Shown here in pieces: positions 59,677 through 60,932 of a stretch of 64,000 bases of DNA. The translations under genes and the position numbers were made by a program. The stretch spans positions 1 through 64,000 of the forward strand of contig JAGWLO010000009.1 in the NCBI GenBank assembly GCA_028872015.1. The letters are read 5' to 3'. Below the pieces are notes generated by a model that was given only the letters and a program-made list of their open reading frames with translations, did no database searches and was not told the DNA's origin. The stretch is from Burkholderiales bacterium. GTDB lineage: Bacteria; Pseudomonadota; Gammaproteobacteria; Burkholderiales; Burkholderiaceae_C. Within the stretch, counting starts at the first letter, position 1. Every line of letters begins with the position of its first letter.

Positions 59677-59721
59677 CGGGCGTGCAATGGACGGCGGCGT
59701 CAGTGGCCTTGTATCTTTAAG

Positions 59722-59870
59722 CCTCGGACCAGCTCGGGTAGCCCGAGCGGCCTCTGGGCCAGTAGTTGAAGCCCGTCTCTGAGCACTGGGCACCCGAGTT
59801 GGACCGTCCTTTCTTGCAGCCCGAACGGTTGTAGGAACCTGCAGTTCGCATAGACAAGGATGGGAGCGAA
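59722..59870 (+). ncRNA. predicted IS110 bridge RNA (seekRNA)
   Basis: The non-coding left end before the transposase is predicted to give a bridge RNA. A 5' hairpin GCTCGGG-TAG-CCCGAGC is at 59732-59748. Target loop: AGCGGCCT (59746-59753) matches left flank plus core AGTGGCCT (59702-59709) at 7 of 8, and CTCTGAG (59777-59783) is the exact complement of core plus right flank CTCAGAG (60848-60854). Donor loop: AACGGTTG (59824-59831) equals the element right end (60840-60847), 8 of 8, and ACAAG (59854-59858) complements core plus left end CTTGT (59708-59712). Exact RNA ends are uncertain. Confidence 0.72.
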
Positions 59871-59875
59871 GGGAC

Positions 59876-60832
59876 GTGTCCGACTCTGTTTTTGTAGGTA
59901 TCGATGTCTCCAGCCAGACGCTGGAGGTGGCCAGTTCCAGTCAGACCAAGACCTGGCAGGTTTCCAACGACGCGGCTGGCCTTGATTCCCTGGTCAGCCG
60001 GCTGTTGGACTTGAAACCGGCGCTGGCAGTGCTGGAGGCCACGGGTGGCTACGAGTTTGAGGCGGCTTGCGCACTGCAGGCGGCTGGCCTGGCCGTGGCT
60101 GTGGTCAACCCGCGCACGGCGCGCGACTTTGCCCGTGCGATGGGTGCGCTGGCCAAGACGGACGCGCTGGACGCTCGCATGCTTGCCGCGTTTGCCCGCG
60201 TGCTGCACCAGCATCCCGAGCGTGAGCGCTTCGTCAAGCCGCTGGCCGACGCCGAGTTGCAGCGGCTGCAGGCGCTGGTGCTGCGCCGCCGTCAACTGGT
60301 GCAGATGAGCACCGCCGAGCGCCAGCGCATGCGCATCGCGCACGCAGCGGCTCGCCCGAGCATCGAGCGCGTGATCGAATTCCTCAAGGCCGAACTGGCC
60401 GACAGCGACGCCGAGGTGGCGGCCCACATCCAGCGCCATCACGCCGAACTGGCTGCTGCCCTGGCCAGCGTGCCTGGCATCGGTGCAGCCAGTGTTGCGG
60501 TGTTGCTGGCCGAACTGCCCGAGTTGGGCAAGCTCGACCGACGCCGCGTCGCCGCCTTGGTCGGCGTGGCGCCGCTGAACCGGGACTCCGGGCAGATGCG
60601 CGGACAGCGCTCGATCTGGGGTGGACGCGCCGACGTGCGTCGTACCCTCTACATGGCCACGCTGACCGCCGTGCGCCACAACGCTGTGCTCAAGGTCCAC
60701 TACGAGCACCTGCTCGCCGCTGGCAAGCGCAAGAAGGTCGCGCTGGTGGCCTGCATGCGCAAGCTCCTGACCATGCTCAACGCCATCGCCAAGAAGGGCA
60801 CGACGTGGGATCCATCGTTGCATATCGCTTGA
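59876..60832 (+). CDS. IS110-family transposase
   Basis: A 318-residue bridge-RNA-guided recombinase. The RuvC-like DEDD residues are visible at D10 ([14 protein letters not shown]), E60 (ATGGYE), D96 and D99 (AKTDALDAR). A central coiled coil (residues ~130-190) joins the C-terminal Tnp domain, whose catalytic serine is S238 in [12 protein letters not shown]; the [19 protein letters not shown] helix-hairpin segment precedes it. It starts with GTG at 59876 after AAGGGA and is intact. Codon use is slightly less GC-extreme than neighbours, in line with mobility. Only one copy is in the window. Confidence 0.93.
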
Positions 60833-60932
60833 CCGTCAAAACGGTTGCTCAGAGGGCGGCGGCGATGCTAAGCGCGGGGCGGCCGCCGGCGAGCGCGCCG
60901 TTGCCACTGCATACACACGGCCCGGGCCTTGC

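What the first reader, a model, noticed from the sequence alone, without database searches (positions are those of the whole stretch)
59708..60849. IS110 element whose bridge-RNA guides can be read and matched to its own ends and target
In the left non-coding end, four short segments match the four predicted half-sites: left target 7/8 (59746-59753 against 59702-59709), right target 7/7 reverse complement (59777-59783 against 60848-60854), left donor 8/8 (59824-59831 against 60840-60847), right donor 5/5 reverse complement (59854-59858 against 59708-59712). All four agree on the same CT core. This defines the element, its RNA and its target (AGTGGC-CT-CAGAG) from one copy. Bridge/seek RNAs of IS110 elements are established knowledge; this particular RNA and its specificity appear undescribed as far as I can tell.
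Basis: partly seen in the sequence, partly recalled or inferred. Interest (0 to 1): 0.85.

Follow-up and report, generated by a model that had tools for sequence, protein, structure and literature searches.

The report
IS110 jumping gene with readable guide RNA
A small bacterial jumping gene carries, in its own left end, an RNA region whose short guide segments match the place where it landed and its own two ends; this is a clean new example of an RNA-guided mechanism already described in 2024, not a new kind of system.

Summary
59708-60849 is one IS110-group insertion sequence: a 318-aa DEDD transposase (59876-60832) behind a bridge-RNA left end. All four guide matches are exact, each once in the left end. 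Relatives support the ends: 21 of 22 aligned relatives start C|CTTGTATCT at 59708 and 17 of 22 end GACGG(T/C)TG|CT; a -35/17 nt/-10 promoter forms across RE|CT|LE in 30 of 30 elements. A relative with four copies targets a 13-mer present 61 times in its genome; unoccupied sites join at that CT. Right-target guide, donor guide and handshake bases follow their DNA partners across elements. Weak point: the left-target guide; in 15 close relatives it fits its own target no better than other elements' targets. The RNA seems to lack IS621's 5' stem-loop (5' end inferred). Expression and activity are untested. Verdict: new member of a known kind. By-product: Rfam RF02234 (sX15) lies on the reverse strand of IS110 bridge-RNA regions; 22 of 30 fetched loci have an IS110 transposase ORF touching it on the opposite strand.

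The parts
59708..60849 (+). IS110-group insertion sequence, 1142 bp counting the CT core at both ends
   Evidence: ends shared by relatives; single copy in own genome
59702..59707 (+). left target half-site (AGTGGC) in the host DNA
60850..60854 (+). right target half-site (CAGAG) in the host DNA
59708..59714 (+). CT core plus right donor (CTTGTAT)
60841..60849 (+). left donor (ACGGTTG) plus CT core
59712..59717 (+). -10 box (TATCTT) of the predicted circle-junction promoter
   Evidence: 17-nt spacing to the -35 across the junction in 30 of 30 elements; coordinates
60829..60834 (+). -35 box (TTGACC) of the predicted circle-junction promoter; contains the transposase stop codon (60830-60832)
59724..59875 (+). 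predicted bridge RNA, about 150 nt; both ends inferred, not measured
   Evidence: consensus fold with compensatory changes
59746..59753 (+). left target guide (AGCGGCCU), 7 of 8
   Evidence: weak covariation
59777..59783 (+). right target guide (CUCUGAG), 7 of 7
   Evidence: best offset of the scan
59784..59785 (+). target-loop handshake guide (CA), can pair with donor TG next to the core
59825..59831 (+). left donor guide (ACGGUUG)
   Evidence: own LD/LDG 207 of 210 letters over 30 elements
59850..59858 (+). right donor guide, AU + 2 skipped + ACAAG over CTTGTAT
   Evidence: pairing scheme as described for IS621 (passages of PMC11208160 and PMC11208158)
59859..59860 (+). donor-loop handshake guide (GA); G can pair with target C 59707, A cannot pair with G 59706
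59876..60832 (+). DEDD transposase, 318 aa, GTG start
   Evidence: PF01548 and PF02371; IS621 and ISCro4 structures by sequence

Best explanation
An IS110-group insertion sequence that works like IS621. When the element is excised as a circle, its right end (-35) and left end (-10) join across the CT core and make a promoter; this transcribes a roughly 150-nt bridge RNA from the left end. The target loop of the RNA pairs with host DNA on both sides of a CT (left guide with the bottom strand, right guide with the top strand), the donor loop pairs with the RE-LE junction of the circle, and the transposase exchanges strands at CT, helped by handshake bases that pair each loop with the other DNA. 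Shown here from sequence: ends, promoter geometry, RNA fold with compensatory changes, covariation of right-target guide, donor guide and handshake bases, and site-specific insertion in a relative. Inferred: expression, RNA ends, catalysis and present activity of this copy, and the role of the left-target guide in this clade.
For: Pfam DEDD_Tnp_IS110 and Transposase_20 above cut-off; closest solved structures ISCro4 9t56 (E 9.2e-36) and IS621 8wt6 (E 1.3e-34), with D10, E54, D96, D99 and S238 in the aligned motifs (that these are the catalytic positions is recalled, except the serine, S241 of IS621, from PMC11208158). Four guide matches together 0 of 20,000 by chance. Ends in relatives. Junction promoter spacing 30 of 30. 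RT guide z 5.78, N=15 and z 8.34, N=30. LDG/LD 207 of 210 letters against 185.7 expected from other elements' donors, 0 of 20,000 permutations (best of three offsets allowed). Donor-loop handshake base against the target base before the core: 19 of 19 close elements, invariant G:C, and 14 of 15 wide elements with one wobble, in G:C, C:G and U:A states (1 of 20,000 permutations as high). Target-loop handshake base against the donor base before the core: 15 of 15 close, 13 of 14 wide elements whose RTG was located with 4 or more matches (16 of 20,000). Fold: 13 of 44 pairs with compensatory changes, 98.2% of cells paired, 0 of 500 shuffles as high on any measure. G015: four copies at a 13-mer present 61 times, unoccupied sites joined at CT.
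Against: Left-target guide: over 19 elements own matches are 50 of 95 against 32.3 expected (70 of 100,000 permutations), but without the window element and three with divergent guides the other 15 give 31 of 75 against 27.3 (21,895 of 100,000); and the guide frames in that count were set by me after seeing the matches, which favours a match. The window's LTG has a C.A mismatch. No 5' stem-loop, although PMC11208158 calls it structurally conserved. The LDG does not continue into the core (59832-59833 are TA, not CT), and one of four handshake pairs is missing. Own genome: one copy and, allowing one mismatch, one other target-like site, with CC in place of the CT core (reversed-pattern control 3), so its target choice cannot be tested there. 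The simple promoter scan finds nothing in the integrated form, as expected if the promoter exists only in the circle. Helix 4 of the consensus fold would hide the LDG; only 1 of its 8 pairs has a compensatory change. In the wide set the ends, and so the donors, were found by motif, which makes their likeness partly by construction.
Confidence: 0.93

Rival explanations
1. The structured left end is mainly a translational control leader (as for ISPpu9), and the guide matches are incidental.
For: The bases directly before the GTG start are paired in the consensus fold, and for ISPpu9 a folded 5'-UTR and an antisense RNA control tnp translation (passages of PMC8450116).
Against: Covariation of RNA with DNA partners at RT, LD and both handshake positions is not expected of a leader. 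The two roles are not exclusive.
Confidence: 0.04
2. A bridge-RNA element, but in this clade the target is chosen mostly by the right guide, the CT core and the handshake base, with the left guide largely relaxed or drifted after insertion. (Compatible with the best explanation.)
For: RT own matches at the variable positions +4 and +5 are 12 and 11 of 15 (cross-element rate 0.27, 0.33), LT own matches at -3, -4, -5, -6 are 10, 11, 7, 6 of 19 (cross 0.27, 0.34, 0.33, 0.23); N=30: RT z 8.34, LT z 2.89.
Against: Four elements match their left target 6 of 6 (L072, L071, L054, L052); LT matching over all 19 is above chance (70 of 100,000). Few elements, and the LT search admits more positions, so its noise is higher.
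Confidence: 0.35
3. A decayed, immobile copy: the anatomy is real but no longer works.
For: Single copy; one LTG mismatch.
Against: Reading frame complete and catalytic motifs present; promoter halves, the other guides and the RNA fold intact.
Confidence: 0.15

Closest known systems
IS621 (IS110 group) bridge RNA and recombinase (PMC11208160: abstract, sections 5, 6, 12 and passages; PMC11208158: passages)
   Same: DEDD transposase, RNA region in a long left end, CT core, target and donor loops with the same guide order, 9-nt-over-7 right donor pairing, handshake bases, RE-LE junction promoter; a relative here uses a repeated target, as IS621 uses REP elements
   Different: transposase distantly similar (E 1.3e-34); right target guide of the long type (7 nt with core); LDG does not pair with the core; predicted RNA starts at the target-loop stem without a 5' stem-loop
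ISEc21 seekRNA (IS110 type; PMC11187229: abstract, sections 12 and 13)
   Same: upstream non-coding region, promoter formed at the circle junction, top-strand match lies 3' of the bottom-strand match
   Different: other target; a 74-nt RNA was described there, which cannot be judged here
ISPpu9 with antisense RNA Asr9 (PMC8450116: passages)
   Same: folded region before the transposase start; ISPpu9 is named as an IS110 family member in PMC11208160
   Different: antisense RNA is measured there; here the simple scan found no promoter on either strand of 59600-60950

Membership tests
IS110 family, IS110 group | DEDD RuvC-like domain (PF01548) and C-terminal serine domain (PF02371) | tested here: met
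   both above the curated cut-off; S238 in the aligned motif
IS110 family, IS110 group | left non-coding end much longer than the right, bridge-RNA region in the left end | tested here: met
   168 bp before the CDS against 17 bp after it; fold and guides
IS110 family, IS110 group | promoter reconstituted at the RE-LE junction | tested here: met
   TTGACC-17-TATCTT; same spacing in 30 of 30 elements; by sequence only
IS110 family, IS110 group | RNA guides match target and donor on both sides of the core | tested here: met
   the left target side is weak
IS621-type bridge RNA | 5' stem-loop, then target loop, then donor loop | tested here: not met
   no pair in the first 25 columns of the consensus fold of 18 left ends; 17 nt in all from the left end to the stem in the window's fold; RNA 5' end inferred
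IS621-type bridge RNA | RNA expressed, bound by the recombinase, directs recombination | not testable with these tools
   needs experiment
IS110 family, IS110 group | short 2-3 bp subterminal inverted repeats flanking the donor | not tested
   feature named in PMC11208160 section 12; not examined
IS1111 group | long right end that carries the RNA | tested here: not met
   right end is 17 bp
IS1111 group | 7-17 bp subterminal inverted repeats | not tested
   not examined

The most novel reading that the evidence does not exclude
This element belongs to a clade, seen mostly in Burkholderiales-like genomes, with a minimal bridge RNA (about 150 nt, no 5' stem-loop) in which target choice rests on the right guide, the core and the handshake base, while the left guide is relaxed; this would separate the two sides of target recognition and offer a smaller natural RNA scaffold.
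Probability: 0.3. Interest if true: 0.5.

Novelty: new member of a known kind. Interest (0 to 1): 0.38.

Why it matters
It shows that the ends, guides and target of an IS110 element can be read correctly from one copy, adds a clade of elements with a natural test set of targets, and gives support from natural variation for handshake pairing. The side result would re-file an Rfam small-RNA family as the reverse strand of bridge-RNA regions.

Tried and rejected
More copies in viral contigs, by protein and by RNA pattern: none. Plasmids: 718 records at E 1e-80 or better, all below 60% identity. Order-wide genome search: 2 of 399 genomes at E 1e-110, one being the window's own. Rfam: no match above its gathering score in 59400-61100.

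Empty site of this copy. In the genus (81 genomes) the right flank matched in 15, the own genome included; the left flank matched at least weakly in 80, own included, and the listed strong ones lie on other contigs than the right-flank matches. By tblastn 0 of the 14 other right-flank loci carry the left-flank gene. In one (G744, L123) the 222 bases before the right-flank gene, cut by the contig end, contain a lipoprotein-like start in the expected strand and no element; this is my reading of the translation, the intergenic letters are too diverged to show a join, and I do not count it as an empty site.

Another frame for the left guide in the close clade: the scan restricted to 16 elements gave no outstanding offset (best z 2.57 at 59718). 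A first LT permutation (best of three frames, 0 of 100,000) is superseded, because the guide of L038 was taken from the wrong place. Structure prediction was not run.

Rows dropped. L070 (misaligned) from all counts except the end counts; L073-L075 counted with L072; L046, L050, L051, L052 have no right end that my pattern recognised and are absent from RT and LD counts: 19 elements for LT, 15 for RT. Wide set: 15 of the 30 distant loci extracted, those whose two ends I could recognise by motif. script faults: for L044 it took a wrong CAAG, and for L039, L043, L049, L015 and L020 it placed the RTG away from its structural position (positions); one search repeats the close set by alignment column (19 of 19 and 15 of 15). 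In one search the transposase profile was built from two proteins only, and ORFs were taken from stop to stop.

Full report
What is there. The window holds an insertion sequence between two minus-strand genes, a lipoprotein-like gene on the left and a dienelactone-hydrolase-like gene on the right (names from my reading of the translations, not from a family search). The transposase (59876-60832, GTG start, 318 aa) matches PF01548 and PF02371 above cut-off and, by sequence, the solved ISCro4 and IS621 transposases. It occurs once in the host assembly of 147 contigs; the other five DNA matches are 28-67 bases long.

The four matches. They are exact as reported. Left target and right donor matches alone are common by chance (0.113 and 0.115), right target less so (0.023), left donor rare (0.0016); together 0 of 20,000 random left ends. 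No other CT site in the window fits the two target guides as well.

Ends. A pattern-based protein scan of the GTDB genome collection gave 35 loci; a search of 299 genomes of the family gave 30 genomes with a match at E 1e-40, the own one included. Of 22 relatives aligned with the element, 21 begin C|CTTGTATCT at 59708 and 17 end GACGG(T/C)TG|CT; four of the 22 are copies in one genome. In the circle, -35 TTGACC (60829-60834, overlapping the stop codon) and -10 TATCTT (59712-59717) would be 17 nt apart across the CT; 30 of 30 elements examined have TTGA at this spacing. This is the arrangement described for IS621 (PMC11208160, section 5) and ISEc21 (PMC11187229, section 12).

RNA fold. The consensus of 18 left ends has a long target-loop stem, an inner stem and a donor-loop stem; 13 of 44 pairs show compensatory changes, 98.2% of cells pair, 0 of 500 shuffles reach any of the five measures, and all slid versions are lower (the structure was derived from the same sequences, which favours it). 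The left and right target guides fall on the two sides of the target internal loop. The hairpin that would hide the left donor guide has a compensatory change in 1 of 8 pairs and may not be the working fold. IS621 has a 5' stem-loop before the target loop (PMC11208160 section 6; PMC11208158 passages); here 7-8 nt separate the -10 from the target-loop stem in the window (some relatives have about 6 more). Left ends are 165-179 nt in the 15 close elements and about 189-315 nt in the 15 wide ones, the latter including about 10 nt of an estimated CDS start.

Guides against partners. Right target: own matches 15, 15, 15, 14, 13, 12, 11 of 15 from the core outwards; in the offset scan its place is the best (z 5.78, 0 of 5000; next z 3.29); with 30 elements z 8.34. 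Left donor: 207 of 210 letters match the own donor against 185.7 expected, 0 of 20,000 permutations, best of three offsets allowed. Handshake bases, as defined for IS621 (PMC11208158 passages): the base after the right donor guide pairs with the target base before the core in 19 of 19 close elements and 14 of 15 wide ones, the 15th being a wobble, with three pair types; the base after the right target guide pairs with the donor base before the core in 15 of 15 close and 13 of 15 wide elements, the two misses being ones whose RTG the script placed wrongly. In the close set these bases do not vary, so only the wide set shows covariation. The handshake offers a reason why the target base before CT is C in 19 of 19 close elements. 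Left target: 50 of 95 letters against 32.3 expected (70 of 100,000), but the signal comes from the window element and three divergent guides; the other 15 elements give 31 of 75 against 27.3 (21,895 of 100,000). The frames were set by hand. The left guide is therefore the least certain of the four.

Target use. A genome of the same family (G015) has four copies; all carry the guides TGCGTC-CU and CUCUGCG (the latter given as its DNA-strand equivalent) and sit at TGCGTC-CT-CTGCG. That 13-mer occurs 61 times in the genome against 1 for the reversed pattern, often in inverted pairs, some of the 61 lying beside the occupied copies. Unoccupied sites with the same flanks are joined at the CT: L094/L096 against L072, L103 against L073, L107 against L074. 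For the window's copy the own genome has no second exact target and no readable empty site was found.

What is known. Bridge/seek RNAs of IS110 elements, their guides, handshake pairing and junction promoter are established (PMC11208160, PMC11208158, PMC11187229). Searches that could have named this element or clade were made; I saw listings with titles and starts of abstracts, and none named it. ISfinder and the supplements of those papers were not consulted, so it may be among their thousands of unnamed elements. I file it as a new member of a known kind.

Side finding. The best Rfam match over the left end is RF02234 (sX15) on the minus strand, full length but far below its gathering score (24.7 of 55 bits; 29.5 bits in L043, 1 of 9 loci scanned). 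RF02234 was found in 1 of 369 genomes of the class and, around that genome, in 35 of 198 family genomes, 22 above the cut-off. Of the 30 loci fetched (one, 29, 8 of them below the cut-off), 22 hold an IS110 transposase ORF, and in all 22 one such ORF touches or overlaps the match on the opposite strand; of the 8 without, 5 have the match at a contig end on that side and 3 (L150, L154, L155) do not. In 16 loci printed, the reverse strand of the match carries ACAGTTG in a CCCGA/GACAGTTG setting in all 16, and 13 of 16 show ACAGTTG again at the right end. So RF02234 is either an antisense RNA over IS110 bridge-RNA regions, as Asr9 is over the ISPpu9 leader (PMC8450116 passages), or a bridge RNA filed on the wrong strand. 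Library searches for sX15 or RF02234: one paper held sX15 with Xanthomonas and sRNA (PMC6337395, one passage seen, a table entry), one held RF02234 (listing only).

Noticed in passing
window 59718-59884 (-); L138-L167: Rfam RF02234 (sX15) lies on the reverse strand of IS110 bridge-RNA regions: in 22 of 30 fetched loci an IS110 transposase ORF touches or overlaps the match on the opposite strand; 5 of the other 8 end at a contig end, 3 show none.
   Followed up: partly
L072-L075, L092-L121 (G015): An IS110 relative with four copies sits in a REP-like repeat; its 13-mer target occurs 61 times in the genome.
   Followed up: partly
window 59860-59878: The bases before the transposase start lie inside the 3' strand of the donor-loop stem, so RNA folding could limit translation, as reported for ISPpu9.
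   Followed up: no
L138, L140, L142, L145, L146, L148, L151: RF02234-linked IS110 elements with left flank TAACGC before the CT and, where a right end was printed, GAATTA or GAGTTA after it; I recall this as resembling integron attC sites (recalled, not tested).
   Followed up: no
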